Shown here: piece by piece, positions 2,148 to 22,863 of the stretch
Position numbering within the stretch: position 1 is the stretch's first letter
Layout: every line of letters begins with the position of its first letter
Assembly (NCBI GenBank): GCA_903922175.1
Contig: CAIXSY010000098.1
Span: 1-32,896 of the forward strand
Origin: an uncultured delta proteobacterium
GTDB lineage: Bacteria; Bdellovibrionota_C; UBA2361; CAIXSY01
Direction: 5' to 3'
DNA length: 32,896 bases
Translations under genes and position numbers: made by a program
Notes under the pieces: model-generated
Told to the model about the DNA's origin: nothing
The model's database searches: none
What the model saw: only the letters and a program-made list of their open reading frames with translations

Positions 2148-2206
2148 CCCAGGATAGCTCCCCAGGATAACCACCCAGGATAGCTCCCCAGGATGTGATC
2201 CCACCT
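2148..2206 (+). repeat. Tandem 13-bp repeat array 1 (four units plus CCCACCT), before the relaxase operon
   Basis: The units are 2148-2160, 2161-2173, 2174-2186 and 2187-2199, in order CCCAGGATAGCTC, CCCAGGATAACCA, CCCAGGATAGCTC, CCCAGGATGTGAT, followed by CCCACCT (2200-2206). Units abut with no spacer. Near-copies occur at 7260-7305 and, inverted, at 21903-21961; the last is identical over about 65 bases. On the complementary strand each unit reads YATCCTG(G), resembling the nick core of MOBP/VirD2 relaxases. It lies 52 bases upstream of the 2259 gene. The position before every transfer operon suggests an operator or activator site. Confidence 0.9.
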
Positions 2207-2217
2207 TAGTAGCTCTC

Positions 2218-2232
2218 ATCTCTGGTAGAGAT
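2218..2232. promoter_or_regulatory. Perfect short inverted repeat between array 1 and the operon start
   Basis: ATCTCT-GGT-AGAGAT is a perfect 6-bp dyad 26 bases before the ATG of the 2259 gene. It is not repeated after arrays 2 or 3. A binding site for a dimeric regulator, possibly the small protein encoded next, is plausible but unproven. Confidence 0.35.
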
Positions 2233-2258: not shown

Positions 2259-2552
2259 ATGCCAGAAAAAACAGAACCTACATTTTCAACGCCTGCCGGA
2301 TTAAACCTTTCGGTTACCGAGATTCGTACTAGGAAGAAGACAGAGAGGACGTTGAGTGTGCGCATAAGCGCTTCTCTTGGAGCCCTTCGAGTTGCGGATC
2401 TTCTTTCAGAGTTTGGGCACTACCCGAGCTTTCGAGACTTTGTGGCGCGTGAGCTTGCTGTGTCGTGTGAGAGGTATTTTGAGGAGGCGTCCGAGCTCAT
2501 AAAAAACGTGGGTCAGGTGGTGCCGAAGTCCAAACCAAGCCAAGCCAGATAG
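2259..2552 (+). CDS. Small relaxosome-accessory-like protein (MobC/RHH-type position)
   Basis: This is a 97-residue protein with ATG at 2259 preceded by GAGGGGGG seven bases upstream. The N-terminus is polar. Residues 28-70 (ERTLSVRISASLGALRVADLLSEFGHYPSFRDFVARELAV) have the beta-strand/helix/helix feel of small DNA-binding relaxosome proteins, and the tail is Lys/Ser/Gln-rich. It is the first gene after array 1 and is separated from the relaxase by about 200 bases that hold oriT-like repeats. That is the usual place of MobC/TraJ-type accessory proteins that bind oriT and assist the relaxase. No exact family is recognised, so the role rests on size, charge and position. Confidence 0.6.
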   Translation: MPEKTEPTFSTPAGLNLSVTEIRTRKKTERTLSVRISASLGALRVADLLSEFGHYPSFRDFVARELAVSCERYFEEASELIKNVGQVVPKSKPSQAR

Positions 2553-2630
2553 AGAGTGGAAAAGAAAGCATAAAGATAAGTGTAAGAGAAAAAGAGTAAT
2601 GCAAGATAAACACAACGCACCTTGGCCTAA

Positions 2631-2733
2631 TTAACTACCCGAAATGGCAAGCGAAAGTGATGTGCGCGGGCAATGTGGGAGGTGCGCGAGTGGGGGTAAT
2701 TAAACGATTTCGTTAAGGAAAGTGAGGTGCGCA
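2631..2733 (+). other. Candidate origin of transfer: repeats between accessory gene and relaxase
   Basis: The 2553-2751 gap contains three related direct repeats: GAAAGTGATGTGCGCG (2653-2668), GTGGGAGGTGCGCG (2675-2688) and GAAAGTGAGGTGCGCA (2718-2733). The first two are enclosed by an imperfect inverted repeat, TTAACTACCC (2631-2640) with GGGTAATTAA (2694-2703), matching at 9 of 10 positions. Repeats of this kind beside a relaxase gene are typical of oriT. However, no YATCCTG nick core lies in this gap; the nearest are in array 1, about 430 bases upstream. The true nick site could be in either place. Confidence 0.4.
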
Positions 2734-2751
2734 GATGAACGGAGAGACAAA

Positions 2752-4809
2752 ATGACAAAATTACCACGCGGCGGTGCTGAGAAAAGCTCTAGCGGTGCGC
2801 ATCCAGTAGTGGGGAATGGGCGCTCGGCAGACCGCCAATTTCGCCAAGACTTGTACGATCTTCGGCGTTTTCTGAGAGCGGGGAGAAGGAAGCGTGACGC
2901 GTCTGACGATGCTCCTACTCGCCGAAACGGGGGGCGCGGACGGGTGCGAATAGGCGAAGCTTTGGCGCAAAGAGTGCTCGTCAAAGGGCGTGTTGTAAAG
3001 ACGAAACAGAGCCGGGGCGGTCGCGCACTGCGTGCTCACCTTAAGTATCTTACGCGCTCTGGGGTAAGCTTTGATGGCAAACAGCCAACCTTTTTCTGCG
3101 ATGGACGCGTAGTTACCGAGGATGAACTTGCCAAGTCCGTCGCTACTTGGGCGCATGACGCGCATCACTTTCGCTTCATTGTCTCACCCGAGAAGGGCGC
3201 TGAACTAGACCTTCCGGCCTACACAAGAGACGTGATGGCATCAGTTCAGAGAGACCTAAAGACAAGGCTTGAGTGGTACGGAGTGTGCCACTACAACACC
3301 GATAACCCCCATGTGCACGTGCTGGTGCGGGGCGTAACTGAACTTGGAGCGGCGCTCATAATCGAGAAAGACTACATGAAGCACGGCTTTAGGCTTGCTG
3401 CTGAAGCTGAGGCAACACGGGTTTTGGGTCGCCGTTCGGCGCTAGAAAAGCGCATTGGGATGACACGAAGTATAACCGAAAAGCGTTTTACGGCGCTTGA
3501 TCGCGCCTTTGTTAAGGAACAAAGAGCGCACCGAGCGGGCCTCATCTTTATCCCAGCAGGTAACCTGTGTCGGCGTGAATGGGAGGTGAAACTGCGGCTA
3601 GACAAGCTCTCAAGGCTTCAGTTTCTTGGCACGCTTGGTCTTGCAGTAGACCATGGAAATGGTCGGTTCGAGGTTGCCAAAGACCTCGAAGAGACACTCC
3701 GGACGCTCGGGCGGCATGAGGCAATTCGCAAACAAGTCCACGATCTAACGCAGGGGAGAAGCGCCGCACAAGAGCTAGTGATTCATGATGCGCGAGACAA
3801 TCTCGATACTAAATTGACTGGCGAAGTCATTGCTAAGGAGCTTACTGATGAACTTACAGACCGGAAGTTTGTACTTTTATCTTCCGACGACGGGCGACTT
3901 CACTATGTTCCGCTCTCTACGTACTCTGAGCCGGAGGGGTTTGGAATACGCCCCGGAGCTCTGGTAACCATACGAGAGGCGAGTCGAGTTAGTAGGGCTG
4001 ATGAGGCGATAGCACGTTACGTTGGGAATGGTGGAGGGGTGTTTTCACTCTCAGGATTTGAAGGACAGCTCAATGTAGCAATAGCTAAGGAGCGCTGGAG
4101 TCTTCCAGAAGACCTTAGCATGGATGAGTATTTGGAGCGTTTTAGAACCCGCTGTAAAAGTCTGGTTGAGCACGGGATCTGCACACCAAACGGCATTGAT
4201 AGCTGGCGTGTTCCCAAGGATTTTAGGGCCAAGGTCACTGAGCTAGACAAGAAACTCTCAGTCCAAACGCATCTTGAAGTGCAGGCTGAGTCGTTTCTAT
4301 CCCTAGCTGAGCAGACAAGGTGGAAGGGGGCGACGTGGCTTGATGTTGTATTAGGTCAGCCTGAAAGCGCTCCAGACCCGAGGACAGCACTGGGTGCCTC
4401 TGTGGCAAAGAGTCTGGAACTAAGGCAACAGACGCTTAAAGAGCAGGGTATTGTCATTAGTTCTGGCCTAGTGGCAGAGCTCTATAAAGCAGAGAGGCAA
4501 GCGTTAGCTGGGGAGTTTTCGGGCAAACTTGGCACAGAGCGCACTCTTAGAGTAGGCGAATCAGTCACTGGAGCGGTGTACGAATACAAGATGCTTGGAC
4601 TTGGGCACCACATGGTGGTGCGCCTCAAGGATAGCTTTGTCGTGGTTCCTGTTAGCGGAAGACAGAGACGTTTTGAGTCCGGCACTAAGGTAAAGATAGA
4701 AGGGGGAGGGCGTGTGTTATCCCGCACTGGGCTAAATCAGCGCTTTAGGGTAACCCCTGTAAAAAGTCCTTCCCCAGATCTCAGGCAGGGTATCCGAAGA
4801 ACTAAATAG
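2752..4809 (+). CDS. Conjugative relaxase, VirD2/MOBP-like with DUF3363-type C-terminus
   Basis: The protein of 685 residues nicks oriT and stays bound to the transferred strand. Motif I is probably HLKYLTR, with Y99 as candidate nucleophile. Motif II is HHFRFIVSPE (138-147). Motif III is HYNTDNPHVHV (180-190), with the His cluster that holds the metal. The long remainder (about 230-685) resembles the DUF3363 part of VirD2-like relaxases. The ATG at 2752 has GGAGAG in good register; an in-frame GTG at 2722 has a poorly spaced site. A 90-residue, Arg-rich extension precedes motif I, whereas in RP4 TraI and VirD2 the nucleophile lies near the N-terminus. VirD4 follows 11 bases later, so the two are probably co-transcribed from array 1. 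Confidence 0.88.
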   Translation: MTKLPRGGAEKSSSGAHPVVGNGRSADRQFRQDLYDLRRFLRAGRRKRDASDDAPTRRNGGRGRVRIGEALAQRVLVKGRVVKTKQSRGGRALRAHLKYLTRSGVSFDGKQPTFFCDGRVVTEDELAKSVATWAHDAHHFRFIVSPEKGAELDLPAYTRDVMASVQRDLKTRLEWYGVCHYNTDNPHVHVLVRGVTELGAALIIEKDYMKHGFRLAAEAEATRVLGRRSALEKRIGMTRSITEKRFTALDRAFVKEQRAHRAGLIFIPAGNLCRREWEVKLRLDKLSRLQFLGTLGLAVDHGNGRFEVAKDLEETLRTLGRHEAIRKQVHDLTQGRSAAQELVIHDARDNLDTKLTGEVIAKELTDELTDRKFVLLSSDDGRLHYVPLSTYSEPEGFGIRPGALVTIREASRVSRADEAIARYVGNGGGVFSLSGFEGQLNVAIAKERWSLPEDLSMDEYLERFRTRCKSLVEHGICTPNGIDSWRVPKDFRAKVTELDKKLSVQTHLEVQAESFLSLAEQTRWKGATWLDVVLGQPESAPDPRTALGASVAKSLELRQQTLKEQGIVISSGLVAELYKAERQALAGEFSGKLGTERTLRVGESVTGAVYEYKMLGLGHHMVVRLKDSFVVVPVSGRQRRFESGTKVKIEGGGRVLSRTGLNQRFRVTPVKSPSPDLRQGIRRTK

Positions 4810-4820
4810 GGGAGAGCACG

Positions 4821-6758
4821 ATGGGAGCAATAAAGCGTAGGGTATGTAGCGCATGTATTTTCGCACTGCTTGTACTATCTGGTCTTTCTGCTGCCACACA
4901 GTGGTACGCGGCGCAGTACAACTATGCGCCGGAGCTTGGCACACCGCTTTCCTCGGCATTTGGGGTAAGCATATATAGACCATGGGACTTTCTGGCCTGG
5001 TCTCGGCAGTTTGCAGACCAAACCACGAGTACTAGAGCTTACTCTTTTGTGCTTCTTAGTGGACTTCTAGGTCTTATCTCTATTGCCGGGATATCGGCGC
5101 TAGGAGCTGAGAAAGGACACGGCGATAACGTGTTTGGTGACGCTTCGTGGGCCTTGCCAGTGGACATCAAAAAGCTTGGTCTTTTGAAGGGCGAGGGTGT
5201 CTTTCTAGGTCAGATGTCAGATGGTCGATATCTGCGCCATAACGGCCCGGAGCACTGCGCAGTGATTGCCCCTACGCGCTCTGGTAAGGGTGCAGGAATA
5301 GTAATCCCTACACTCTTGAGCTGGAAAGAGAGTGCAATCATTTACGACTTGAAGGAAGAAAACTACGCCAAAACTTCTGCCAGACGCGCCCAGTTCTCGG
5401 ATGTAATCTATTTTAACCCCAAAAGTGTAAAAAGTGCGCATTTTAATCCGCTTCTGGAGGTTAGAGAGGGGATAAACGAGGTTCGTGACGTCCAAAATAT
5501 CGCCAATATGATAATTGAGCCGGAAATTGCCGGTGCCTCTGATCATTGGGTAAGGACCGGTAACTCCCTTCTCGTTGCGGCAATTCTTCATGTGCTTTAT
5601 ACCGCGTCCAACGGGGAGAAGAACTTAGCTGGAGTGACAAGTTTCTTGTCGCGGGCTACTGAGACTCTTGATAATACGTTGCAGCAGATGCTTGATACGA
5701 ATCATATTCGCGGGCCTTCTGGGCGTCCGCATCATCCGCACCCGCATATTCAAGAAGCAGTACGAGATGTACTCAATAAATCCCCCGATGACCGCTCTAG
5801 TGTGCATTCGACGGTTATGGGGTATTTAAGCCTCTACCGTGACCCGCTCTTAGCAGACTGCACACGAGACAGTGATTTTTGTATCACTGACCTTGTAAGC
5901 GCGGAGCGGCCAAAGTCACTCTACTTAGTGATCCCGCCTGCTGACATATTGCGCCTACGGCCAATCATTAGACTTATCATTAATCAGATCTGTAGAAGAC
6001 TCACAGAGGAGTTGCCGAGTGAAAGAGCGATCCAACGGCGTCATCGGCTTTTACTGATGCTAGACGAGTTTCCTGCCCTCGGGCGTCTCGAGTTTTTCGA
6101 GTCTGCCCTTGGTTTCATTGCAGGCTATGGACTAAAAGCTATGCTTATATGTCAGTCGATTAATCAGCTAAAACAGGCCTATGGTGATCGAAACTCATTA
6201 TTTGATAACACGCATATAAAAGTGTTTTTTACTCCTAGCACGCCAGAAACTGCGGAGTACATCTCAAGAAGTTTGGGCACCAGCACGGTAAAATATCGAA
6301 CCGAAGGAGAGAGTGGTCAAAAGGGGTCTCCCTTTTTCTCCGGGAAAAGCGCCTCGATGCAAATCGGGCAACGCCCCCTTATGACCGTACGCGAGGTGCT
6401 TGATATGCCACCCTCCAAAGAACTATTGCTAATTGGGGGCGCTAGGCCGATTAAGTGCGATAGAGTCACTTACTATGATGACGCAAGTTTGAGCCAATTC
6501 ATCGAAGCGCCGATTTCACCTAACCGCGATAAGATTCAGGCCCCACCCGCTGCATCCGAAAACAGCTCTTGGCTTGTAAAATACGGGGATGCGGTACTTG
6601 CAGATGATGCGCCTCAAGTTGCTGAGGATAGAAAGTCACTAGCGGAGGAGAATGTGCTGGAGATTGAAGTTATAAAGCCTCCAGAAGGCCCGAGGTGGAA
6701 AAAGCCGGGGGCGCAAGCAAGTAGCGTGAGCCCCGAAGACGACGGAAATTTGGTGTAA
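4821..6758 (+). CDS. virD4: VirD4/TraG-type coupling ATPase (T4CP)
   Basis: This inner-membrane ATPase of 645 residues delivers the relaxase-DNA complex to the type IV channel. Two N-terminal membrane segments (about 8-30 and 73-96) flank a periplasmic loop. Walker A is PTRSGKGAG (151-159), Walker B is LLLMLDEFPALG (410-421), and CQSINQL (444-450) is the conserved Gln-bearing motif after it. VFGDASWA (104-111) is the usual TraG-family entry motif. GGGGAG lies six bases before the ATG. The C-terminal 90 residues are acidic and variable, as in T4CPs that recognise substrates there. It sits directly downstream of the relaxase, and the next gene starts one base after its stop, so coupling is likely. 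Confidence 0.95.
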   Translation: MGAIKRRVCSACIFALLVLSGLSAATQWYAAQYNYAPELGTPLSSAFGVSIYRPWDFLAWSRQFADQTTSTRAYSFVLLSGLLGLISIAGISALGAEKGHGDNVFGDASWALPVDIKKLGLLKGEGVFLGQMSDGRYLRHNGPEHCAVIAPTRSGKGAGIVIPTLLSWKESAIIYDLKEENYAKTSARRAQFSDVIYFNPKSVKSAHFNPLLEVREGINEVRDVQNIANMIIEPEIAGASDHWVRTGNSLLVAAILHVLYTASNGEKNLAGVTSFLSRATETLDNTLQQMLDTNHIRGPSGRPHHPHPHIQEAVRDVLNKSPDDRSSVHSTVMGYLSLYRDPLLADCTRDSDFCITDLVSAERPKSLYLVIPPADILRLRPIIRLIINQICRRLTEELPSERAIQRRHRLLLMLDEFPALGRLEFFESALGFIAGYGLKAMLICQSINQLKQAYGDRNSLFDNTHIKVFFTPSTPETAEYISRSLGTSTVKYRTEGESGQKGSPFFSGKSASMQIGQRPLMTVREVLDMPPSKELLLIGGARPIKCDRVTYYDDASLSQFIEAPISPNRDKIQAPPAASENSSWLVKYGDAVLADDAPQVAEDRKSLAEENVLEIEVIKPPEGPRWKKPGAQASSVSPEDDGNLV

Positions 6759-6759
6759 T

Positions 6760-7233
6760 ATGAGTAGCCTTGATAGACGAACTTTCTGCTTTCCTAAAGA
6801 GCTTTCTTCCAATCTAAAACAGATGGCCGCCGCTCGCGGCGTAACTGTATCGGCGCTAGTTGAGGGAATTTTGGAGGAAGCGCTCTCTGGCTCATCCGAG
6901 AAAGACCGCTTGCGCGGGATAGAGGAGCGCCTAGCCTCGCTTGACCGTCGTCTAAAAGCGCTCCGCTACGATGGGGAGCTTTTGGGGGAGATCTTTTCTT
7001 TCTATATCTTTCAGTGGCTCTGCTATGCGCCGCCACTTCCGGAAAATGGAAGATCGGCAATCGTCGCTGAGGGAAAAGAGCGGCACAAGCGCTTTTTCGA
7101 TGTGCTCGCCGGTAAACTTGCTCGTGGTGAATTTAGCTTGGGGGAGCTTTACGGTCGAGATGTTTTGACAAAAGAGCCAGAAGAAGCTGAGTTACCAAAA
7201 ACAGGGTCAGATGATGTAGTGAGCGAAGACTAG
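6760..7233 (+). CDS. Ribbon-helix-helix-like protein co-encoded with the coupling protein
   Basis: This 157-residue protein starts one base after the VirD4 stop (TAATATG). Residues 1-45 (RRTFCFPKELSSNLKQMAAARGVTVSALVEGILEEAL) fit a CopG/Arc-type ribbon-helix-helix: a short strand, then two helices. Residues 48-70 are charged and coiled-coil-like (DRLRGIEERLASLDRRLKAL), and the rest is helical with an acidic end. Proteins of this kind next to VirD4 often link the coupling protein to the relaxosome or regulate transfer operons. It is therefore a candidate binder of the CCCAGGATA arrays. Family membership is inferred from pattern, not from a search. Confidence 0.6.
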   Translation: MSSLDRRTFCFPKELSSNLKQMAAARGVTVSALVEGILEEALSGSSEKDRLRGIEERLASLDRRLKALRYDGELLGEIFSFYIFQWLCYAPPLPENGRSAIVAEGKERHKRFFDVLAGKLARGEFSLGELYGRDVLTKEPEEAELPKTGSDDVVSED

Positions 7234-7259: not shown

Positions 7260-7305
7260 CCCAGGATAACCACCCAGGATAGCTCCCCAGGATGTGATAC
7301 CACCT
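7260..7305 (+). repeat. Tandem 13-bp repeat array 2 (three units), before the trbB operon
   Basis: The units are 7260-7272 (CCCAGGATAACCA), 7273-7285 (CCCAGGATAGCTC) and 7286-7298 (CCCAGGATGTGAT), followed by ACCACCT (7299-7305). They equal units 2-4 of array 1 in the same order and orientation; unit 1 is missing. The array starts 27 bases after the preceding stop and ends 56 bases before the next gene. It marks a second start of control inside the transfer region. Confidence 0.9.
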
Positions 7306-7361
7306 CTGAAAATTGAAAGTGGCGTAATGTCTATCAAATACTCATGAAGGTGAAACATAAC

Positions 7362-7577
7362 ATGAATAATTATCAACTACGCTTACTTCTTAATGCTTTG
7401 TGTCAGGTGTATTCGCTTGAGGAACTTGAGGATGGACGGACAATTACAAGCTCTCTCATTCGCTACCTTTATCTAACTCCGGAGGCAGTTGGGGCCCTTC
7501 TTTATGGCGCATGTCAGCTAAAACGCCTGCGAAGTGGTGGTCATACAGAAAGCTTTTCAGCTCTTATAGAGCATTAA
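7362..7577 (+). CDS. Small protein upstream of trbB, function unknown
   Basis: This is a 71-residue protein. The ATG at 7362 is preferred because AAGGTG lies nine bases upstream. An earlier in-frame ATG at 7344 would place that ribosome site inside the gene. The sequence (MNNYQLRLLLNALCQVYSLEELEDGRTITSSLIRYLYLTPEAVGALLYGACQLKRLRSGG...) looks helical, with no membrane segment or signal. It is the first gene after array 2. Its stop overlaps the region of the trbB ribosome site (TAAGGA), suggesting translational coupling. No family is recognised; it may regulate or assist the TrbB unit. Confidence 0.55.
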   Translation: MNNYQLRLLLNALCQVYSLEELEDGRTITSSLIRYLYLTPEAVGALLYGACQLKRLRSGGHTESFSALIEH

Positions 7578-7586
7578 GGACTAACT

Positions 7587-8525
7587 GTGACAGACAGCGG
7601 CAGCCGTGTTGTAGAACTTGTAGAAAGTGCGTTGGGGCCCGTGGTAAAAGGGCTCCTGTTGGACCCTCATATTAGTGAGATTCGTCTCAATTCGGACGGA
7701 GCGCTGTGGGCCAATAAGCTTGGCGTCGGCAAGTTCGATACATCGCATAAAATTGCACCGGAAAGTGCCAAACGGGCCATAGAGGCTGTGGCCTATAGCG
7801 TTGGCGAGTGTTGCAACGAGCAAAAGCCAGCAATTTCAGCGGAGCTTCCAGGTACCGGGGAGCGATTCCAAGGCGTTTTGCCGCCACTTAGCAAAGGCCC
7901 GGTGATTGCTATCCGAAAGAAGGCGACACGTATTTTCTCGCTCACAGATTTTGAAGCGCAAGGGGTGTTGGCTTTGGGGCAAAAAGAGCAGCTTTGCGAA
8001 GCGCTGCACAAAAAGCGAAACATTTTGATTGTTGGGGGTACCGATAGCGGCAAGACTACGTTTGCAAACGCTCTTTTGCAGGTTATTGCCGACACTAAAG
8101 ATCGTGTAGTGATTATTGAAGACACTCAGGAGCTTCAATGTAATGCAACCGATGTTGAGTACCTTAGAACACGAGACGGCGTTGCCTCGCTAAGGGATTT
8201 GGTGCGAGTCACCATGCGACTTAGTCCAGACCGAATAGTGATTGGTGAGGTGCGTGGCGCAGAGGCGTTAGACCTCATAAAAGCCTGGAACACGGGACAT
8301 GGGGGAGGGGTGAGCACTGTACACGCAAGCTCGGCACGCCAAGGGCTTTCGCGTATAGAACAGCTGGTGCAAGAAGCTGGCGTAGCGCCCTCTCGGCCAA
8401 TGCTAGCCGAAGCGATAAATATTGTAATTTATATGGAAAAAGTAGGCACCAAGCGCCTTGTAAAAGACGTGCTTGAAGTAAAAGGCTTTGAGCATGAGGC
8501 GTATGTGCTTACAAAATTGATGTAG
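7587..8525 (+). CDS. trbB: TrbB/VirB11-family secretion ATPase
   Basis: This 312-residue hexameric ATPase works at the cytoplasmic face of the type IV channel, alternating with TrbE and VirD4. Walker A is GGTDSGKTT (150-158), the Asp box is VVIIEDTQEL (174-183), Walker B is RIVIGEVRG (216-224) and the His box is GHGGGVSTVHA (237-247). The length matches RP4 TrbB-type proteins. Translation begins at GTG 7587 with AAGGA six bases upstream. In the usual trb order trbB heads the trbCDEJLFGI cluster. Here it is separated from trbC by more than 13 kb, lies on the opposite strand and has its own repeat array. Confidence 0.95.
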   Translation: MTDSGSRVVELVESALGPVVKGLLLDPHISEIRLNSDGALWANKLGVGKFDTSHKIAPESAKRAIEAVAYSVGECCNEQKPAISAELPGTGERFQGVLPPLSKGPVIAIRKKATRIFSLTDFEAQGVLALGQKEQLCEALHKKRNILIVGGTDSGKTTFANALLQVIADTKDRVVIIEDTQELQCNATDVEYLRTRDGVASLRDLVRVTMRLSPDRIVIGEVRGAEALDLIKAWNTGHGGGVSTVHASSARQGLSRIEQLVQEAGVAPSRPMLAEAINIVIYMEKVGTKRLVKDVLEVKGFEHEAYVLTKLM

Positions 8526-13688: not shown

Positions 13689-13896
13689 GTGCCTTTGTGC
13701 AATTTACTGCGTCTGCTGGCCCAAATACGGTGATGTTGTGCCACTCTGAGCTCTTAATTGCCGCACCGGTATCATCCCGCCTAACCTCCTCCGTAGCTAA
13801 GGGCAAAAAACAGTATGGATGCTTATCAGACGTGACCTTAAGTACCGGATCTGCTCCAAGTGTTCCTAATGCGGCTTGAGTTAAGTATCGTAGGGC
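13689..13896 (-). pseudogene. ssb: Remnant of a single-stranded-DNA-binding protein (SSB) gene
   Basis: On the minus strand directly after trbI, the frame opened by a TGA at 13899-13897 encodes a clear SSB OB-fold segment: ALGTLGADPVLKV, then YCFLPLATEEVRR, then SSEWHNITVFGPADAV. These match the SSB landmarks LGNLGxDPE, FxxATxE and WHxIVVFG. There is no start codon in frame between the TGA and the homology. The frame loses similarity at about 13690 and runs on to TAA at 13665-13663 inside the end of the FG-GAP gene. About 65 residues remain of a protein usually over 110 long, with the acidic C-terminal tip lost. SSB is a common partner of conjugative leading regions. The break coincides with the cargo edge, suggesting that acquisition of the 10.3-13.7 kb segment destroyed it. 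Confidence 0.75.
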
Positions 13897-14999
13897 TCAA
13901 GAATTACGTCTTTATGCACAAAGACGTTGAAGCGAAAGCCGGGGCGGATTTCGAGTGTTGGTTGCACAGCAAGGTTTCTCCTCGTTATCTGCTGACCTAC
14001 GTCATTAATGTTTCTGGCAGCACCTTGAGCTGCTAGCTGGCCATAGCTTGGATCTACTGTGTTAAATGTCTGTCCCTCTGCAAGCTGAGCACTAGCACTA
14101 AGGAGAGAGGATAAAACTACACCGGTAATGAGACGCAGATAATGGTTATTAACTTGGTCCGAAAGCCCAGCCGCCCCACTCAAATCAACTCCAGGCATGC
14201 CTTCAAGCGAAATTGAGCGTCCATTGGGGAAAATAATCCTTGTCCAGACAATGAGAAGGCGCTCTTGGCCGAAAACAATGCGACTATCATATTCTCCAAG
14301 CACCTTGGCCCCCTGAGGTACTAGTAGGTAATTTCCGCTCACAGTGTCGTATACGTTCTGAGATACTTGTCCCAATATCTGTCCAGGTAAGTCTGAGTTC
14401 AATCCGGTAAGAAGAACTCCTGGAATAATAGTACCGGACATAAGTTCATATTTAGATCGCGGTGAATGAAGCCTGTCGCCTAGGTATGTGTCGTTAGAGC
14501 GCTTGCCTGAGAGAAAAGTATTTTTGTCATCTTGTCTATTCTCATTATCCCTGGGGTTTGGCGCCCCAGCGACTCGCTGTGGGTCTCCAGCCGACATCGG
14601 TGAGTCAAACCTACTAGAACTTGCTGGCGCGGAGATACTTAGTCCCTGAAAGGTAACGGGGGAAGCTCTAGCGGCATCTGCTCTTTTTTGTCTCTCGGCA
14701 AGTGCTTGCGCCAAAAGCTTGTCTGTGTCTGATAGGCTAGGCGTGTTGATGGGAGCTGGTGTTGGAATCGGACGCTCCTTAGGGATATCGCTATAGGAAG
14801 TTGGGAGAAATGAGACCACGTGACTGGGCATAACTTTAGAGCCGTCCTGTGCAGCTTGCCGTATCTCATTAGGAGCCTTTCTTGTTATCACAGCGACAAC
14901 AACAGCAATGGCAAGTAGTGCTCCCACAAAAAGCACCCCTTGGCGACTAATCATCAGGGCTGGCCTAGGATAGGTCTTTCGTACAAGTCCGTCGCTCAT
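13881..14999 (-). CDS. trbI: TrbI/VirB10-family channel protein
   Basis: This 372-residue protein links the inner and outer membrane parts of the channel. Residues 1-19 are cytoplasmic, 20-40 form the membrane segment (GVLFVGALLAIAVVVAVI), and 60-180 are Pro-, Ser- and Asp-rich linker. The C-terminal VirB10 domain starts near 183 (YELMSGTIIPGVLLTGLNSDLPGQILGQVSQNVYDTVSGNYLLVPQGAKVLGEYDS) and keeps the family motifs through RPGFRFNVFVHKDVIL. AGGAGAG lies before the ATG. It is the last gene of the trbC-to-trbI unit and is followed immediately by the ssb remnant. The length is somewhat shorter than RP4 TrbI, with the difference in the linker. Confidence 0.95.
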   Translation of the reverse strand: MSDGLVRKTYPRPALMISRQGVLFVGALLAIAVVVAVITRKAPNEIRQAAQDGSKVMPSHVVSFLPTSYSDIPKERPIPTPAPINTPSLSDTDKLLAQALAERQKRADAARASPVTFQGLSISAPASSSRFDSPMSAGDPQRVAGAPNPRDNENRQDDKNTFLSGKRSNDTYLGDRLHSPRSKYELMSGTIIPGVLLTGLNSDLPGQILGQVSQNVYDTVSGNYLLVPQGAKVLGEYDSRIVFGQERLLIVWTRIIFPNGRSISLEGMPGVDLSGAAGLSDQVNNHYLRLITGVVLSSLLSASAQLAEGQTFNTVDPSYGQLAAQGAARNINDVGQQITRRNLAVQPTLEIRPGFRFNVFVHKDVILEPYDT

Positions 15000-15008
15000 C
15001 GCTCTCTC

Positions 15009-16061
15009 CTACTCGAAAAGTCTTTGGAAGAAGTTTCTATGTGTTCCCGCCTTAATCCCGATCTTTTGACGTGTTCCCACACGTAGCTCAGCTTCAGTAA
15101 AGAGGCGATCGACAATGTAAAAGTCACCTTTTACCCGGTAGTTTACGAGCATCGGCTGAGAAGAGTCCTCGATGATGAAAAGCGCGGGAGCATCAGCTAC
15201 GCTTAAAGTAGAGGGCATTTGGATAAATGTCTTTTTGCCATCATCAAAGACGCGTACTGGTCGCCAGGGATAGTCCTGGTCTTCTATTTGATAAGCGAAA
15301 CGCAGTGAATCAGGGGTTACCACGGTCTGTTCTGTGATATTCTTGCGCTTAACTATCTCGTCTGCCTGTGCCGCGAAGTCTTCTGGGTAATTCCATGAGA
15401 CTGCCGGCATATGATAGTCGCCACTTTTTAGCCTGAGGTGATACGTGTGCAGATCTGTTGTAATGATAAGATTGGTTTCTACTAACTCATCTAGTGGCTT
15501 TAGGATCACGTGGACTACCTCCTGAGGCCCTGTCCCACTTTTCATCGTGGCTACATTCCAGCGCACCGTGTCTCCTGCTGTGGGTGCGTTATTAAGTGAT
15601 TCACCGGGTTTTAACTGCACATCTGTTATGTGGTCTACGGAGGAGGTGACTTCGTAGAGCGCTTCAGGTGAGTAGTTGAATACGGTTCTTGCGCCCCGAA
15701 CTTTGACTTTGCGCGGAGATTGGGTGGCAAGTAAGGTAGTACGCTCAATAATTAGCTTATTGTTAAGTATATCTACTTGCGAGGCTAGCTCTTTAAGAAG
15801 GCCCCCCTCGGGCGTTTTGGGGCTCTTTACAGCTTTAAGTGAAGCTGTGTTGCTATGTACCGGTGGCGTCCTAGTAGCCGCCTCCATTTTTAAAACCGCT
15901 TCGTATTCTTGGTCAGCATCTCGCATCGCTGCTTCTAGATCGGCACGCCCAATCTGGGTCGGGACTGTGTCGGGTGGCTCAGCGAAGGTCTGTCTGGCTA
16001 GAGACATTGCTAAGAGTGCCAAAAGTATCACATACACAGTTATGGTAGTTCTCTGTTCCAT
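15009..16061 (-). CDS. trbG: TrbG/VirB9-family outer-membrane channel protein
   Basis: This 350-residue periplasmic/outer-membrane component assembles with TrbI in the core complex. A Sec signal covers residues 1-27 (MEQRTTITVYVILLALLAMS...TFA). An extra Glu/Ala-rich stretch of about 100 residues precedes the VirB9 domain. That domain shows YEVTSSVDHITDVQLKPGES, WNVATMKSG, TNLIITTDLHTYHLRLKSG and a C-terminal half ending FLRVGTRQK-like (AELRVGTRQKIGIK). AAGGAG lies six to seven bases before the ATG. The start overlaps the end of trbF by 22 bases, indicating coupled translation. Confidence 0.93.
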   Translation of the reverse strand: MEQRTTITVYVILLALLAMSLARQTFAEPPDTVPTQIGRADLEAAMRDADQEYEAVLKMEAATRTPPVHSNTASLKAVKSPKTPEGGLLKELASQVDILNNKLIIERTTLLATQSPRKVKVRGARTVFNYSPEALYEVTSSVDHITDVQLKPGESLNNAPTAGDTVRWNVATMKSGTGPQEVVHVILKPLDELVETNLIITTDLHTYHLRLKSGDYHMPAVSWNYPEDFAAQADEIVKRKNITEQTVVTPDSLRFAYQIEDQDYPWRPVRVFDDGKKTFIQMPSTLSVADAPALFIIEDSSQPMLVNYRVKGDFYIVDRLFTEAELRVGTRQKIGIKAGTHRNFFQRLFE

Positions 16062-16744
16062 TGAAAGCTCCTTATAAAAATGCCAAGCGGGTTTTCTTGC
16101 AGCGTTTTATCATCCCTTGGAGGATCAATTTCGATTAAAAATGTGCCTAGCATTGTGTAGTCGTCTATCTTCTGGCCGCCACTTGAGTAAGCCGTCTCTC
16201 TCCAGCGCATTTGGTAGGAGTTGGTTTCGGGGACTTGAACGATCGAGATCGGTTGTATAGAAACTACTAGCTTCCCAATTTTCCTAAGGGGGTTGTTCTG
16301 CTCACTGTTGGCCATCTCATTTAAAAGCCCCGCCGCGTCATGGCGTAGGTACGAGTAGGCGCGAAGCCAATTTTGCTTAATCACTACTGGGTCAAGGGGA
16401 AGGGAGCGAACAAATCGGATAAACTGAGTAAGGAAATATTTAATCTCAAGCTGGCCAAGTTGATACTGCTTGTCCGTAGCGGGGCCAAGGACGACAGGTT
16501 CGCCAGTACCACGGTCGATACCTACTAGGACGGGCACCACTTTGGCTTGTCGCGCTTGGGTAGCTAGTGTCAGTGTAAGCAGAAGGCTAAAAACGACCAT
16601 ACAAAAGAAGGCTAGGCGCCAGTTTTTTGCTTGGACTACGTTAGATCCGATTCTGAGGTCCCATTCCTGCTTGGCGCGAGCAAAAGGAGTTTCGGGAGCA
16701 CTTTGCGGCTTCATGCAGACGGGGTTTTTTAGGAGTGCGTGCAT
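16040..16744 (-). CDS. trbF: TrbF/VirB8-family inner-membrane assembly protein
   Basis: The protein has 234 residues. The short cytoplasmic N-terminus includes the TrbF signature TPFARAKQEWDLRIGSNVVQ (about 19-38). A single membrane segment lies at about 43-63 (WRLAFFCMVVFSLLLTLTLA). The rest is a periplasmic VirB8-like NTF2-fold domain (VPVLVGIDRGTGEPV, FIRFVRSLPLDPVVIKQNWLRAY, MRWRETAYSSGG). TrbF nucleates assembly of the channel through contacts with TrbG and TrbI. AAGGA lies close before the ATG at 16744. It lies 11 bases downstream of trbL and overlaps trbG. Confidence 0.93.
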   Translation of the reverse strand: MHALLKNPVCMKPQSAPETPFARAKQEWDLRIGSNVVQAKNWRLAFFCMVVFSLLLTLTLATQARQAKVVPVLVGIDRGTGEPVVLGPATDKQYQLGQLEIKYFLTQFIRFVRSLPLDPVVIKQNWLRAYSYLRHDAAGLLNEMANSEQNNPLRKIGKLVVSIQPISIVQVPETNSYQMRWRETAYSSGGQKIDDYTMLGTFLIEIDPPRDDKTLQENPLGIFIRSFQWNRELP

Positions 16745-16755
16745 GGTTGTCCTTG

Positions 16756-18024
16756 CTAATCTTTAACGCCAGGTTGCTTATCTTCCTTTCTCTTTTCGGT
16801 ATCCTTTTTCTTCGCGTGATCTCGGTACTGGGGCACCGAGAAGAGCCCACGTTGAACAGCGCCCTTTATGCCGCCTTGGGCAGGATTGAGACCCAAATCA
16901 GCGCGTGTAGCTTTAGAGCCGGTAGGGGAGCCATTTTTACCGTGCATGAGGTGCTCACCCATCGCGCTTGCTGCTCCAGAAAGTACGCCAGAGGCGGCCC
17001 CAAGTGCACCTAGAGCACCTTTGGATGCTATGGTAGCGGCCTTACTTAGTGGGCCCCCGGAAATTCCTTTGGGCGAAAGAGCTTGAGCCGCAGGTATGGC
17101 ACCTCCCATGGCTGCTCCAGCCGTACTCATTGCGACACTCCCCATGGAGGTTAATCCGGTAGACTGAGCCTCGGCTAACCTTCCCCCAAGAACAGCAGCA
17201 CCGGCAGCGGTAGCAGCTACCGATCCTGCTGAGATATGCGGAGAGCCGGTAAGAAGAGTAAGCGCTAATCCTGGGGCATGAAAGCCTAGGAAACAGAGCG
17301 CAAGCGCGACTACCACGAAGTCTAACGATTGCTGCCACGTAACAGCAGCAGGTAAAATAAGCTGGCCGACATACTGTTCTGCTGCACCGATAATCAAGCC
17401 AAGGCACATAAACTTAATGCCAAAACCTATTATGGCTCCAAAAACTCGGTCTGCCAAAAAACGCAGAGGCTCGAATATGCCAAATGGAATGAGGATAAAG
17501 CCTAGTGCCGACACCACCAGATATTCGAGATACGTGACAAACATCTGAATAGCTAACAGCCCAAAACAAAGGCAACTTACGATGCCGCCGAAAAGCACCA
17601 CAAGCGGATCGAGCGATATCAGATCCAACATCCCCATCTCTAAAAGTTTATCAAAGGCAGGCTTTATTTTTTGACATCCAAGAGTGAAAATATGGCCTGG
17701 GTCTTTAAACAGGCTAAGATCAGCGCCAGTCTCTCCCGAAGCTTTCTGGCCCGCATAAATGAATCCGGCAAGTACTGTGTCAAGAAGTGACGAGTAATTA
17801 GAGATGACAAAGCTAAAAAAACCTATAATAAGAAGCTTTTTGGCCACACTGCGAAGCTCTGCCCCTTGGCCAATTGCAAAGTAGATCCCCGCAAAAATCA
17901 CCTCTACGATGATCAGAAGATGAAAAATCGACTGTGCATCTTCAAGCAGTGCCACTCTGCCCTTGTCAAAGGACTGAGCGAAAAAGGAGAGTGTGCTTGT
18001 TATTCCTTGTACTTTGTCAGCCAT
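16756..18024 (-). CDS. trbL: TrbL/VirB6-family polytopic channel protein
   Basis: This inner-membrane protein of 422 residues forms part of the DNA passage. It has about seven to eight hydrophobic segments in the first 270 residues (for example IFHLLIIVEVIFAGIYFAIG and LVVVLFGGIVSCLCFGLLAI-like stretches). A Gly/Ala/Ser-rich low-complexity region follows (about 270-370), then a basic, Lys-rich cytoplasmic tail, as in TrbL. The ATG at 18024 lies one base after the trbJ stop (TAAGATG), fitting termination-reinitiation. A TTG at 18039, overlapping trbJ, is an alternative start. Neither has a strong ribosome site. It is shorter than RP4 TrbL, mainly in the tail. Confidence 0.92.
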   Translation of the reverse strand: MADKVQGITSTLSFFAQSFDKGRVALLEDAQSIFHLLIIVEVIFAGIYFAIGQGAELRSVAKKLLIIGFFSFVISNYSSLLDTVLAGFIYAGQKASGETGADLSLFKDPGHIFTLGCQKIKPAFDKLLEMGMLDLISLDPLVVLFGGIVSCLCFGLLAIQMFVTYLEYLVVSALGFILIPFGIFEPLRFLADRVFGAIIGFGIKFMCLGLIIGAAEQYVGQLILPAAVTWQQSLDFVVVALALCFLGFHAPGLALTLLTGSPHISAGSVAATAAGAAVLGGRLAEAQSTGLTSMGSVAMSTAGAAMGGAIPAAQALSPKGISGGPLSKAATIASKGALGALGAASGVLSGAASAMGEHLMHGKNGSPTGSKATRADLGLNPAQGGIKGAVQRGLFSVPQYRDHAKKKDTEKRKEDKQPGVKD

Positions 18025-18025
18025 C

Positions 18026-18832
18026 TTAGAATTGTCCAATTGGATTCAAAGGGAGACCAGTAGCTTTTGGCACTACTTGCCCAAAGTCTGAGAGCGCCTC
18101 ACGAGCCCGGTTTGCTAGGTTTCCCTTGCGATGATTTTCCTCTAGTTCGCGCGCTGCATAGGCCTGCACATACTCACCCATCGTTATATTGAGGGATTGC
18201 AGTGATTTTGCGACCATCCCCGTTAGCTCACTCCCAATTTTGATAGACTGCATGACGCCTACTGCTTGATGGGTGTCATCGAGCAGTTTTAATGTCTGCG
18301 CCTCTGCCACTGGCAGAGAGTCCCTAATCTTTGCGCCAACTTTGATCGCATGCTTCATCTGGATTTTTGTCAAAAGAAGCTGCTTTTTCATGGCGTGGAC
18401 TTTTTCGGCCACTTCTGGAGCAACGCCATTATAAAAAGTGTCTTCCGGTTTATCTTGTACCTCCCAGTTGTCGTGGTAGCCTGGGTAGCGAGACTCCAGA
18501 GCGTCGATGGCACCCATGAGACCACCTCCCTGGTAGTCATCTATCTCGTGGAGTACGTCGTCAAAGAGTTTTTTGTACTGGTTTGCAAAAAGGGTGAATT
18601 TATGGCTTGCGAGATTTACGTGGTCTATTTCAGCCCATTTATTGAGGTTTTGCAGCTTGTTTCTCATGTTGTCTAACTGATCGATCATGGCGAGTGTGTG
18701 CTTTACCTGCTCATACAGTTGAGTTACAGCGGCAGGGTCATACACGATATCCCCCACACCAAGTATTGCGTAGCTAAGCACGGGAGCAAGTAGCAACAGG
18801 ACCGCAAGTAGCGCGTTAATACATTTTTTCAT
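18026..18832 (-). CDS. trbJ: TrbJ/VirB5-family conjugal transfer protein
   Basis: This 268-residue exported protein has a signal peptide at 1-22 (MKKCINALLAVLLLLAPVLS). The mature part is all helical: VYDPAAVTQLYEQVKHTLAMIDQLDNMRNKLQNLNKW matches the TrbJ N-terminal pattern, and the rest has repeated amphipathic helices. TrbJ acts in pilus assembly and mating-pair contact, like VirB5. Its ATG overlaps the trbE TGA (ATGA at 18829-18832), a classic coupled junction. In the RP4 order an entry-exclusion lipoprotein gene, trbK, follows trbJ; none is present here. Confidence 0.92.
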   Translation of the reverse strand: MKKCINALLAVLLLLAPVLSYAILGVGDIVYDPAAVTQLYEQVKHTLAMIDQLDNMRNKLQNLNKWAEIDHVNLASHKFTLFANQYKKLFDDVLHEIDDYQGGGLMGAIDALESRYPGYHDNWEVQDKPEDTFYNGVAPEVAEKVHAMKKQLLLTKIQMKHAIKVGAKIRDSLPVAEAQTLKLLDDTHQAVGVMQSIKIGSELTGMVAKSLQSLNITMGEYVQAYAARELEENHRKGNLANRAREALSDFGQVVPKATGLPLNPIGQF

Positions 18833-21261
18833 GCGACGTCTTTTACCTCCATCAAGCCTGATAGTGTTTGTGCATATTCGGTGAGGCCCTTTCGCTCCAG
18901 ATAGCGAACATTAAAATCAAGTGTATCAGTCGAGGTTTTTAGAAGTTCTCGCACTAAAGAGCTTTGCTCCTTTGAAACTCCGGCACAGTACGTGAGGGCA
19001 ACTTTGCCCAGTGCGAGATCAAAGAGACGGTTCCCGAGGGGTGAGGTGTAATAGTAGTCACGCTTAGGGGTGGCACAGGCGAGGATTTCAATTTGACGGT
19101 CGTTTAGTCCAAAACGTTTGTAGAAGGCGGCCGCATCGGGCTGGAGTGCTACAGCATTTGGAAGATAGATTTTAGTAAAACAAGCTTCTTTTAGAGTGGG
19201 TGCTATCTGACTAGTGTCCACGTCCGCTAGGCTTTGAGTTGCAAAAATTACGGAAACATTTTGCTTCCGAAGTGTTTTTAGCCACTCTCTTATCTTTGTG
19301 GCAAATATGGGGTGATCAAGATAAAGCCATGCTTCATCCAGCACGAGGAGAGTAGGGGAGCCGTCGAAGCGCGATTCTAGCCTATGAAAGAGATACGAGA
19401 GCACAGGAGCCACCACCGCCGGTGTATCCATGAGCCGCTCCATCTCAAAACACTGAAACCGCCCGTAGGAGAGAGAATCTTTGCCATTATCGATAAGGCG
19501 TCCATAGGCACCGCTTTGTGTAAATGGTTCAAAGGCAGCACGAAGCTCCATATTTTGGAGATAGACGGTGAATGAGTGTAGCGTGCGCTGCTCTTTGGGC
19601 GTGGCGGCAAGCGAGTTTAGAGCCTCCCAAATTGCACTCTTAACCTCAGGTGTTGTTTTGACGTTCTCTTTCTCTGCTAGCGCAACTAACCAGTCATGCG
19701 CCCATTTCCGCTCGGCGGCGTTATCTACAAGCGAGAGCGGTTGTAGTAGTAGTGCGGCCTCTTCGGCCCCTAGGTCGTAGAAGTCTCCACCTACGGCTGA
19801 TGTTAGGGTAAGCGCGCTCTGGCCTTTGTCAAAAATATAAACTTGAGCATTTTGGTAGCGTAAAAACTGCGCCTCTATAAAATTGAGCAGTGTGGACTTG
19901 CCGGAGCCGGTTGGACCAAGAATAAGAGTATGTCCCACGTCTCCTATGTGGTTAACAAAGCGAAAGGGAGTGTTGCCTGACGTTTCGGCAACAAATAGAG
20001 GGGCTCCCTGAAGGTGCTTGTTTTCGCCCTGTCCTCCCCATAGTGCGCTAGCCCCTGGAAGTAGGTGGGAGAGATTTATGGTGTTTATAAGGGGGCGGCG
20101 CACGTTGCGCTGTGTATTACCTGGGACAGCACCGAGCCAAGCATCCACGGCATTTACAGTCTCCCTTCTACATGTAAACCCGGCGGAGTTTATGACACGC
20201 TCTACTTCACTGGTTAAACTAGCAAGCATCGTTGCATCAGTGTGAAGAAGCACTATGGAGGCGGTAAAATAGCCGTAGGCAATCTCATCACTACCAAGTT
20301 CCACTAAGGCATGTTCTGCGTCCAGAGCCTTCTGTATAGCGTCGGTATCACTTACAGAGGACTCTTGCTTTGTGATAAGCTCCTTAATGAGAGCTACTAA
20401 CCCTTTGCGCTTTGCAAACCATTTTCTCTGATAGCCTTCAAGCTCTTTTTTGGCGTCAACCTTGTCGAGGCATATAAAGCGAGCGACCCAGCGGTATGAG
20501 ATCGGCAGATGGTTTAGGGCATCAAGAATTCCAGGGCTAGAAGAGCCAGGAAACGACATAATGCCAACTACAGACATGTGATGATCCCCTAACTTAGGTG
20601 CGAAGCCTGATAGCAGGGGGGTATCTGGCAATATTGCGTCCAAATAGACCGGAATTTCAGGCATGCACACTCGGTGATGTTTGGGGGAAATAGTGGAGTG
20701 TAGGTAGGTAAGAAGCGAATCGCCCTGCAAGAGTTCAACCTCAGGGAAAATTCGCTCCATGAGATCAAAAACTCTAGCTACGTCAGTCCGGAAAGTTTCG
20801 AGGACGGCCTCGTAATTAATACTTTCCTTGGATGAGTCGGAGCGAAGAAAGAGGTTCGTAAGCTTTGTGGTGCGGTCTCCGGGGGGAAGGTAAAGAAGAG
20901 TTAGGTAATACGAGGACTCGAAGTGACTATTCTTGCCAAAGGCTATCCGTCTTTCTTCATCGATTAGGGCACTTACCGGATCGCTAAACTCTGAGTCGGG
21001 GTACGGCTGCGCTATGTCTCTACTTGCCTCTGCATAAATCGCCCAAGATGAGCCAAGGCGTCTTAGGACGTTGTTTATATGGGCGGCTTTGACCAACAGC
21101 TCTTCTTCTGTTGAAGAGTCGAGATCCGGGCCACGATAGCGCACAGTTGTCTGAAATGAGCCATCTTTGTTCAGCACTACGTCTGGCGCCGCTAGCGCTG
21201 CCCATGGAAGAACATCGCTTAGGCGATCGGGGTTTTTTCGATGTTCTCGAATATCAAGCAT
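18829..21261 (-). CDS. trbE: TrbE/VirB4-family conjugation ATPase
   Basis: This is the largest channel ATPase (810 residues); it powers pilus and substrate movement at the inner membrane. The N-terminal CagE/TrbE region (about 1-400) is followed by a RecA-like domain with Walker A GPTGSGKST (449-457), Walker B PTLLVLDEAW (636-645) and the following VIFATQSLADV motif (671-681). The length is close to RP4 TrbE. The ATG follows the trbD stop by three bases. No ribosome site is obvious, so coupling to trbD is likely. No frameshift or missing motif was seen. Confidence 0.96.
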   Translation of the reverse strand: MLDIREHRKNPDRLSDVLPWAALAAPDVVLNKDGSFQTTVRYRGPDLDSSTEEELLVKAAHINNVLRRLGSSWAIYAEASRDIAQPYPDSEFSDPVSALIDEERRIAFGKNSHFESSYYLTLLYLPPGDRTTKLTNLFLRSDSSKESINYEAVLETFRTDVARVFDLMERIFPEVELLQGDSLLTYLHSTISPKHHRVCMPEIPVYLDAILPDTPLLSGFAPKLGDHHMSVVGIMSFPGSSSPGILDALNHLPISYRWVARFICLDKVDAKKELEGYQRKWFAKRKGLVALIKELITKQESSVSDTDAIQKALDAEHALVELGSDEIAYGYFTASIVLLHTDATMLASLTSEVERVINSAGFTCRRETVNAVDAWLGAVPGNTQRNVRRPLINTINLSHLLPGASALWGGQGENKHLQGAPLFVAETSGNTPFRFVNHIGDVGHTLILGPTGSGKSTLLNFIEAQFLRYQNAQVYIFDKGQSALTLTSAVGGDFYDLGAEEAALLLQPLSLVDNAAERKWAHDWLVALAEKENVKTTPEVKSAIWEALNSLAATPKEQRTLHSFTVYLQNMELRAAFEPFTQSGAYGRLIDNGKDSLSYGRFQCFEMERLMDTPAVVAPVLSYLFHRLESRFDGSPTLLVLDEAWLYLDHPIFATKIREWLKTLRKQNVSVIFATQSLADVDTSQIAPTLKEACFTKIYLPNAVALQPDAAAFYKRFGLNDRQIEILACATPKRDYYYTSPLGNRLFDLALGKVALTYCAGVSKEQSSLVRELLKTSTDTLDFNVRYLERKGLTEYAQTLSGLMEVKDVA

Positions 21262-21264
21262 ATC

Positions 21265-21513
21265 TTACACGTCGTAGTATGGTTTTTGATTTATGTGGCG
21301 TTTGAAAGTGTCAAGAAAATATGGGTCGTGCTTGGCGAGCACTACAGCTGCGGCGTGCATCCCCATAATCACAGGGATGGCAAGAATAGACTGTAAGCCA
21401 AAAACAAGTGCCGCCCCAAAAGTCACGTTTAAGATCGCAAACTCCCTGGGTGCCCCGCCAAGCAGGATGGGCTGAGTAAGAGACCTATGGATAACCACAT
21501 CAAATCCTTCCAC
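21265..21513 (-). CDS. trbD: TrbD/VirB3-family inner-membrane protein
   Basis: This is an 82-residue protein starting at GTG 21513, with AGGAG eight bases upstream. The N-terminal VIHRSLTQPILLGGAPREFAILN is the TrbD/VirB3 signature. A hydrophobic hairpin follows (VTFGAALVFGLQSILAIPVIMGMHAAAVVLA), then a short polar tail (DPYFLDTFKRHINQKPYYDV). It works with TrbE and TrbC in pilus biogenesis and in some systems is fused to VirB4. The gene lies 18 bases downstream of trbC and three bases before trbE. Confidence 0.92.
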   Translation of the reverse strand: MEGFDVVIHRSLTQPILLGGAPREFAILNVTFGAALVFGLQSILAIPVIMGMHAAAVVLAKHDPYFLDTFKRHINQKPYYDV

Positions 21514-21531
21514 AATCAGATCTCCTAGTCT

Positions 21532-21837
21532 CTACCAGCCAAAAAACGTTGGTGCCCATGTGCTCGCTCCAATGGCAAGTGCTCCACCGAACACTGCACA
21601 TGAGCAGCGACGAAAGAAGGAGCCCGCTTCTCCTATTGCAAAGGCTAGGCCCGCAAGAATAATGGCTAGAATAATCACTATTTGAGCGGTTGTGCCTTGG
21701 AGGCTTGCAAGAAGCTTCCTCAGAGGGGTCTCCCATGGCATTGCTGCTACCTCCTGTGCATAGGCGGGAACTGAATAAATTACGGTTACTAGGGCTGTAC
21801 TGATTGAAGCTACTACTTTATCAGATATACGTTTCAT
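21532..21837 (-). CDS. trbC: TrbC/VirB2-family propilin
   Basis: This 101-residue propilin is the subunit of the conjugative pilus. It has a long signal-like N-terminus (MKRISDKVVASISTALVTVI...AYAQ, cleavage near 28) and a mature part with two hydrophobic segments (IVIILAIILAGLAFAIG and CAVFGGALAIGAS). The ATG at 21837 has GGAGG nine bases before it; a TTG at 21855 would swallow this site. It is the first gene of the leftward trb unit, 66 bases after the end of array 3. RP4 TrbC is cyclised by the TraF peptidase, but no traF is found in the window, so processing would rely on a distant enzyme or differ. Confidence 0.9.
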   Translation of the reverse strand: MKRISDKVVASISTALVTVIYSVPAYAQEVAAMPWETPLRKLLASLQGTTAQIVIILAIILAGLAFAIGEAGSFFRRCSCAVFGGALAIGASTWAPTFFGW

Positions 21838-21902
21838 CGTTTCGATCCTCCACAAAGGTTGTCGTTTTGTAGGGGTAGAAATAGCCTATAATTTGCTAAC
21901 AG

Positions 21903-21961
21903 AGGTGGGATCACATCCTGGGGAGCTATCCTGGGTGGTTATCCTGGGGAGCTATCCTGGG
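21903..21961 (-). repeat. Tandem 13-bp repeat array 3 (four units), before the trbC-I operon
   Basis: On the minus strand the units are 21961-21949, 21948-21936, 21935-21923 and 21922-21910, followed by CCCACCT (21909-21903). Units and order equal those of array 1, and the identity extends a few bases upstream (ACAAAT). The array points at trbC, as arrays 1 and 2 point at their genes. The match of about 65 bases, 19.8 kb away and inverted, shows either strong selection or recent copying. Confidence 0.92.
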
Positions 21962-22535: not shown

Positions 22536-22547
22536 ATGCTCAATTTT

Positions 22548-22829: not shown

Positions 22830-22863
22830 TTTACATACTCCCAAATTAGACGCCTGTCCTTAC

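What the first reader, a model, noticed from the sequence alone, without database searches (positions are those of the whole stretch)
2148..2206. Shared tandem 13-bp array in front of each transfer operon
Three arrays of abutting 13-bp units (2148-2206, 7260-7305, 21903-21961 minus) stand before the relaxase, trbB and trbC units, all pointing towards their genes. Arrays 1 and 3 are identical over about 65 bases although 19.8 kb apart and inverted. No protein coding constrains them. I see no shared -35/-10 at a fixed distance, so this is more likely a binding platform than a copied promoter. It would let one regulator switch on the whole transfer system; the ribbon-helix-helix-like proteins at 6760 and 22829 and the relaxase are the local candidates.
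Basis: partly seen in the sequence, partly recalled or inferred. Interest (0 to 1): 0.75.

Follow-up and report, generated by a model that had tools for sequence, protein, structure and literature searches.

The report
Shared switch before conjugation operons
A DNA-transfer element in an uncultured bacterium carries the same short repeated DNA tag in front of each of its three groups of transfer genes, and related elements do the same with tags of a different sequence, so the tags are very probably the docking site of one regulator that controls the whole transfer machinery together.

Summary
Confirmed: three arrays of abutting 13-bp units lie 52-66 bp upstream of the first genes of the relaxase, trbB and trbC units, and nowhere else in the 4.8-Mb assembly. 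Arrays 1 and 3 match 65/65 bases.

Elements with the same genes elsewhere in the phylum also carry one private operator in front of their transfer operons: two copies in G005, two in G024, four in G041. Copies are 80-100% identical within an element while flanks sit near chance, and no similarity between element types was significant. So the arrangement is conserved while the sequence turns over, as expected for an operator evolving with its own regulator.

In the best-sampled type (G024-like), a -10-like TANNNT lies at exactly +25 in 6/6 transfer-linked sites and 0/6 chance matches, and no -35 box is present. One copy precedes an integrase gene. This is the SetCD-type class II activation layout. 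In the window itself the -10 is only suggestive (p=0.29).

The regulator is unidentified. The RHH protein at 6760 belongs to a family common where no such array was seen. The small 2259 protein occurs only with the operators and is the better local candidate, unproven. Activation is inferred; repression remains possible. New variant of a known kind.

The parts
2148..2206 (+). Operator array 1 (four 13-bp units plus CCCACCT), in front of the 2259-relaxase-traG unit; the identity with array 3 starts at 2142
7260..7305 (+). Operator array 2 (three units plus ACCACCT), in front of the small-ORF-trbB unit
21903..21961 (-). Operator array 3 (four units plus CCCACCT), in front of the trbC-D-E-J-L-F-G-I unit; identity with array 1 extends to 21967
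2226..2231 (+). Candidate -10 TAGAGA, +31 from GTGA of the last unit (not significant alone)
7325..7330 (+). Candidate -10 TAATGT at the same offset
21878..21883 (-). Candidate -10 TATTTC at the same offset
2259..2552 (+). Small protein of 97 aa, first gene of the relaxase unit; family seen only with these operators; beta-beta-alpha-alpha predicted; candidate regulator or relaxosome accessory protein
2601..2610 (+). GCAAGATAAA, conserved between the 2259-type gene and the relaxase in all relatives: likely nic/oriT core
2722..4809 (+). Relaxase (DUF3363)
4821..6758 (+). TraG-type coupling protein
6760..7233 (+). RHH_5-like protein, conserved after traG also in other phyla
7344..7577 (+). Small first gene of the trbB unit (start probably 7362)
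7587..8525 (+). trbB ATPase
13881..21855 (-). trbI-G-F-L-J-E-D-C, read from trbC (ATG near 21838)
22041..22844 (-). J-domain protein (22041-22535) and RHH-like small protein (22548-22844) upstream of array 3

Best explanation
The arrays are the operators of one element-encoded transcription regulator that sets all transfer operons at once: relaxase/coupling protein, trbB unit and trbC-I unit. Shown: the tandem arrays, their exclusivity, their position 52-66 bp before the first genes, and the same layout with other sequences in three related elements. Shown for the G024-type relatives: the operator occupies the -35 position of promoters whose -10 lies at a fixed distance, without a -35 box. Inferred: several head-to-tail protomers of the regulator bind the 13-bp units, the promoter-proximal one sits where sigma would contact -35 and recruits RNA polymerase (class II activation, as SetCD does in SXT/R391), so relaxosome, coupling protein and secretion channel are switched on together. 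The regulator co-evolves with its operator, so each element type has a private sequence.
For: Operators shared within an element: window 45-46/46 and 65/65; G005 28/31; G024 20/25; G041 25-28/28, each p<1/500; flanks near chance (17-50%, mostly 20-40%). Exclusive to transfer operons: window type; G005: both exact sites of the 3.2-Mb genome; G041: all four sites on the one element contig; G024. Tandem ~13-bp period again in G005 (p=0.004) and G024 (p=0.0005), 12 bp in G013 (p=0.001). Fixed -10: G024 type 5/5 at +25, p<1/5000; with the own-genome C405 site 6/6, against 0/6 of chance pattern matches; G041 p=0.022. -35 slot matches TTGACA less well than random, 2.1 against 2.9 of 6. The same operator before a tyrosine-integrase gene. 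Precedent for class II control of int, xis and tra: PMC4344509.
Against: The -10 in the window's own three promoters is not significant (p=0.29) and array 1 has no TANNNT. No binding or expression data exist. The regulator is not identified; characterised plasmid networks such as R388 (PMC3937220) use only repressors, and a repressor overlapping -35 would also fit the position. The operator types are not demonstrably homologous to each other. G041's operator has no significant tandem period.
Confidence: 0.58

Rival explanations
1. The arrays are operators of a repressor, such as an oriT-proximal accessory protein that autoregulates its operon and represses the other transfer operons, as StbA, KorA and ArdK do in R388.
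For: The 2259 gene sits beside the likely oriT and directly behind array 1, the layout of stbDRs-stbA and of MobC-type autoregulators. R388 regulators that act on several operons are repressors, and StbA and ArdK bind direct repeats, those of ArdK next to -35 (PMC9723621, PMC3098194, PMC3937220).
Against: Repressed plasmid promoters normally keep a -35 box (ArdK operators contain TTGACA); here the -35 slot is poorer than random in the two relatives where a -10 can be placed.
Confidence: 0.28
2. A dedicated alternative sigma factor reads the conserved block as its -35 element (GGAAC in the G024, G041 and G003 types).
For: GGAA(A/C)C lies 24-26 bp upstream of the putative -10 in three types.
Against: Window and G005 types have no GGAAC; the upstream repeat is equally conserved; the conserved block stops before the -10; no sigma gene among the element ORFs scanned.
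Confidence: 0.06
3. The arrays were recently duplicated as mobile or gene-converted repeats and are not operators.
For: Arrays 1 and 3 are identical and sharply bounded.
Against: The position is the same in three operons and four element types; copies in G005, G024 and G041 have diverged and are still held while flanks are random.
Confidence: 0.04
4. The arrays act in the transcribed leader, as RNA structure or RNA-binding sites.
For: They are close to the start codons.
Against: No folding signal: z = -1.3, +0.7, -0.4. The fixed -10 in relatives places the operator upstream of the start of transcription.
Confidence: 0.04

Closest known systems
SetCD boxes of SXT/R391 ICEs (and AcaCD of IncA/C plasmids)
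   Same: One operator before several transfer operons and the integrase; located at -35; no recognisable -35 box; element-specific (PMC4344509).
   Different: SetCD box is a 19-bp motif bound by an FlhDC-like pair; here 13-bp tandem units, other sequence, and no SetC/SetD or FlhDC-type match was found in the proteins scanned.
stbDRs / StbA of plasmid R388
   Same: Direct-repeat arrays (9 bp spaced by 2) upstream of a small oriT-proximal gene, with further copies at other promoters (PMC3098194).
   Different: Repressor and segregation protein; further copies lie in the maintenance region; 11-bp period; different sequence.
ArdK / KorA operators of R388
   Same: Direct repeats next to -35 shared by several promoters; operators diverge strongly between family members (PMC9723621).
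   Different: Contain the -35 box itself and repress; two repeats; no KorA/ArdK match among the window proteins.
Tn4371-like (DUF3363 relaxase) ICEs of Proteobacteria
   Same: Relaxase, TraG, RHH protein and trb genes.
   Different: No 2259-type gene and no array like this one shared between operons in the loci examined.

Membership tests
Transfer-regulon operator set (general kind) | Same sequence before several transfer operons, in the same orientation | tested here: met
Transfer-regulon operator set (general kind) | Absent from the rest of the genome | tested here: met
Transfer-regulon operator set (general kind) | Bound by an identified regulator that changes expression | not testable with these tools
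   needs binding and expression assays
SetCD/AcaCD system | Operator at -35, -10 at a fixed distance, no -35 box | tested here: inconclusive
   met in the G024 type; not significant in the window (p=0.29)
SetCD/AcaCD system | FlhDC-like SetC/SetD genes in the element | tested here: not met
   no such Pfam match among the scanned ORFs of the window and of G041; contigs may be incomplete
StbA/stbDR | StbA/TraK-family protein next to oriT | tested here: not met
   2259 family has no convincing Pfam, NCBIfam or solved-structure match
KorA/ArdK operators | KorA-family HTH protein; TTGACA within the repeats | tested here: not met
   no HTH of that kind in the window; no TTGACA in the arrays
RHH-bound operator | 2259 protein is a ribbon-helix-helix protein | tested here: inconclusive
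   beta-beta-alpha-alpha model, pLDDT 78, no Foldseek hit at E<=0.001

The most novel reading that the evidence does not exclude
The 2259-type proteins are a new family of DNA-binding transfer regulators that also serve the relaxosome; each has re-evolved its own tandem operator, so whole transfer regulons in this phylum switch operator sequence while keeping promoter geometry, and in integrating types the integrase is in the same regulon.
Probability: 0.28. Interest if true: 0.68.

Novelty: new variant of a known kind. Interest (0 to 1): 0.48.

Why it matters
It gives a sequence-level definition of transfer regulons for mobile elements of a thinly sampled phylum, marks promoter and oriT positions that can be tested with reporters in a laboratory host, and shows that operator sequence can turn over completely between related elements while architecture stays, which makes regulator-operator co-evolution in conjugation directly testable.

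Tried and rejected
Close relatives by relaxase sequence in genome contigs and by trbE in viral contigs: none found. Array DNA in plasmids: none. Exact array pattern in viral contigs: seven single matches, not followed up. Tn4371-type loci of other phyla for an array like this one or for repeats shared between operons: nothing comparable. Homology between the operator types: not significant; alignments of window, G005 and G024 units made by eye (CCCAGGAT / CCTAGGTG / CAAGGATG) are therefore not claimed. RNA structure: none. Structure matches of the 2259 protein: none. A fixed -10 in the window's three promoters: a TA at +31, but p=0.29, so used only as a pointer.

Full report
Observation. Their units are CCCAGGATAGCTC, CCCAGGATAACCA, CCCAGGATAGCTC and CCCAGGATGTGAT, closed by CCCACCT (array 2 lacks the first unit and ends in ACCACCT). 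Arrays 1 and 3 match over 65 bases, array 2 over 46 of 47. The 60 bases on either side are no more alike than chance, 22-38%. The tandem structure itself has p<0.0005. In the 4.8-Mb assembly that holds the window the arrays occur nowhere else, so whatever reads them is specific to this element. Array end to start codon is 52 (2259 gene), 56 (if the small ORF before trbB starts at 7362) and 66 bases (trbC).

Setting. The window holds a conjugation system: ArdC, a small gene (2259), a DUF3363 relaxase, a TraG coupling protein, an RHH_5-like protein, a small ORF, trbB and others on the + strand, and trbC-D-E-J-L-F-G-I on the - strand, preceded by a J-domain protein and a small RHH-like protein. 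GCAAGATAAA at 2601-2610, between the 2259 gene and the relaxase, recurs at the same place in the four relatives read there (G005, G013, G024, G041) and is the likely oriT core; the arrays are not part of it.

Relatives. The host phylum is thinly sampled (46 genomes held). Searches with relaxase, TrbE, TrbB and the 2259 family found related elements in G005, G013, G024, G041 and G045 and further trb clusters in the own genome. None carries the window's array sequence. Instead each carries its own. G005 (relaxase 36%, TrbE 66% identical): GTACCNCCTAGGTGTACCANTTNGGTGACCC before the relaxase unit and before trbC; these are the only exact matches of its first 18 bases in its 3.2-Mb genome. G024: GTTGGAATNCANGGNNGGAACCANC before both units, and a related copy before a second 2259-type gene (C20). 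G041: GGAAACTTTCGGAAAAAATNNGCGATTA before the relaxase unit, a small gene, trbC and, with two mismatches, the operon that leads into trbB; four sites, all on the one element contig. G045 has the G024 type before its 2259 homologue. G013 has a 12-bp-spaced repeat at the same place (p=0.001). Within elements the shared blocks are far beyond chance (each p<1/500), 80-100% identical between the copies of one element (68-88% across the wider G024 type), with flanks of 17-50%. Between the window, G005, G024 and G041 types no similarity was significant. Arrangement conserved, sequence replaced: this is what an operator that co-evolves with its own regulator looks like, and it argues against a neutral repeat.

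Promoter geometry. In the G024 type, TANNNT lies at exactly +25 from the promoter-proximal GGAA in all five sites tested first (p<1/5000 by shuffling) and in a sixth, own-genome site (C405), but in none of six matches of the same pattern taken to be chance (their gene contexts were not all inspected). A seventh linked site precedes a tyrosine-integrase gene on own-genome contig C73 and has TA but not the final T there. By eye, similar blocks also precede integrase genes in G024 C256 and own-genome C318, the latter next to a tRNA-Cys-like gene (not tested statistically). A further C405 site at 6708 was found by a search that required TANNNT and is not counted. G041 has a weaker fixed -10 at +26 (p=0.022). 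In both types the place of the -35 box holds the operator and matches TTGACA less well than random sequence, 2.1 against 2.9 of 6. In the window a TA stands at +31 from GTGA in all three promoters (TAGAGA, TAATGT, TATTTC), but this is not significant alone (p=0.29); applying the geometry to the window is an inference from the relatives.

Mechanism. An operator in place of -35, a -10 at a fixed distance, several operons and an integrase gene under the same sequence: this is the layout of SetCD-dependent promoters of SXT/R391, where the activator compensates for the missing -35 (PMC4344509). I therefore favour class II activation by an element-encoded regulator binding head to tail on the 13-bp units. 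Repression of the R388 kind (StbA, KorA, ArdK; PMC3937220, PMC3098194, PMC9723621) is the main rival and cannot be excluded without expression data.

Which regulator. The RHH_5-like protein at 6760 belongs to a family present at 36 of the 80 DUF3363 relaxase loci kept from a whole-collection scan; six such loci of other phyla were examined and showed no shared operator, so it is a poor candidate. The RHH-like protein at 22548-22844 had no detectable homologue in the related elements. The 2259 family was found at none of those 80 loci apart from two that are the G013 and G041 contigs already in hand, and in the phylum only in genomes where an operator of this kind stands before it. It is predicted with moderate confidence as beta-beta-alpha-alpha (pLDDT 78) without a match in the PDB. 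Co-occurrence is all there is: it may be the regulator, an oriT accessory protein, or both; the true regulator may also lie outside this contig. The J-domain protein is a conserved neighbour but is not a DNA-binding protein by its domain.

Verdict. A real, conserved, element-wide transfer operator; known in kind, new in sequence, host group and turnover pattern; regulator unknown.

Noticed in passing
window 2601-2610: GCAAGATAAA between the 2259-type gene and the relaxase is conserved in G005, G013, G024 and G041, and GCAAGATAAAG also turned up before a Sphingobium DUF3363 relaxase (L085): likely nic/oriT core.
   Followed up: partly
G000 contigs C70, C405, C390, C318, C73 (L167, L168, L169, L209, L219, L220): The same assembly holds further trb clusters and integrase genes of at least one other conjugative element; C405 trbE matches in two pieces.
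   Followed up: partly
L220 about 1-1500: Integrase gene directly beside a tRNA-Cys-like gene, suggesting an ICE attachment site at tRNA-Cys.
   Followed up: no
window 22041-22535: Membrane-anchored J-domain (DjlA-like) protein conserved in the related elements, next to an operator in the window, G024, G045 and G024 C20.
   Followed up: partly
L027 2924-3976 and 5253-6722: The G041 element carries ParA and RPA-type replication initiator genes, with homologues on the G005 contig: these elements are probably plasmids.
   Followed up: partly
G041 C78 about 16720-16760: A partial inverted copy of the G041 operator faces the gene divergent from the relaxase operon.
   Followed up: no
window 1-540 (-): Collagen-like Gly-X-Y repeat protein at the contig edge.
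   Followed up: no
window 23221-24960 and 29153-31780: Two CHASE2-domain proteins flanking an ABC transporter and HD-domain genes, outside the transfer region.
   Followed up: no
window 11406-13688: FG-GAP protein with 99-bp repeats (DSDGDG..., thrombospondin-type-3-like) between the two trb units: possible surface cargo.
   Followed up: no
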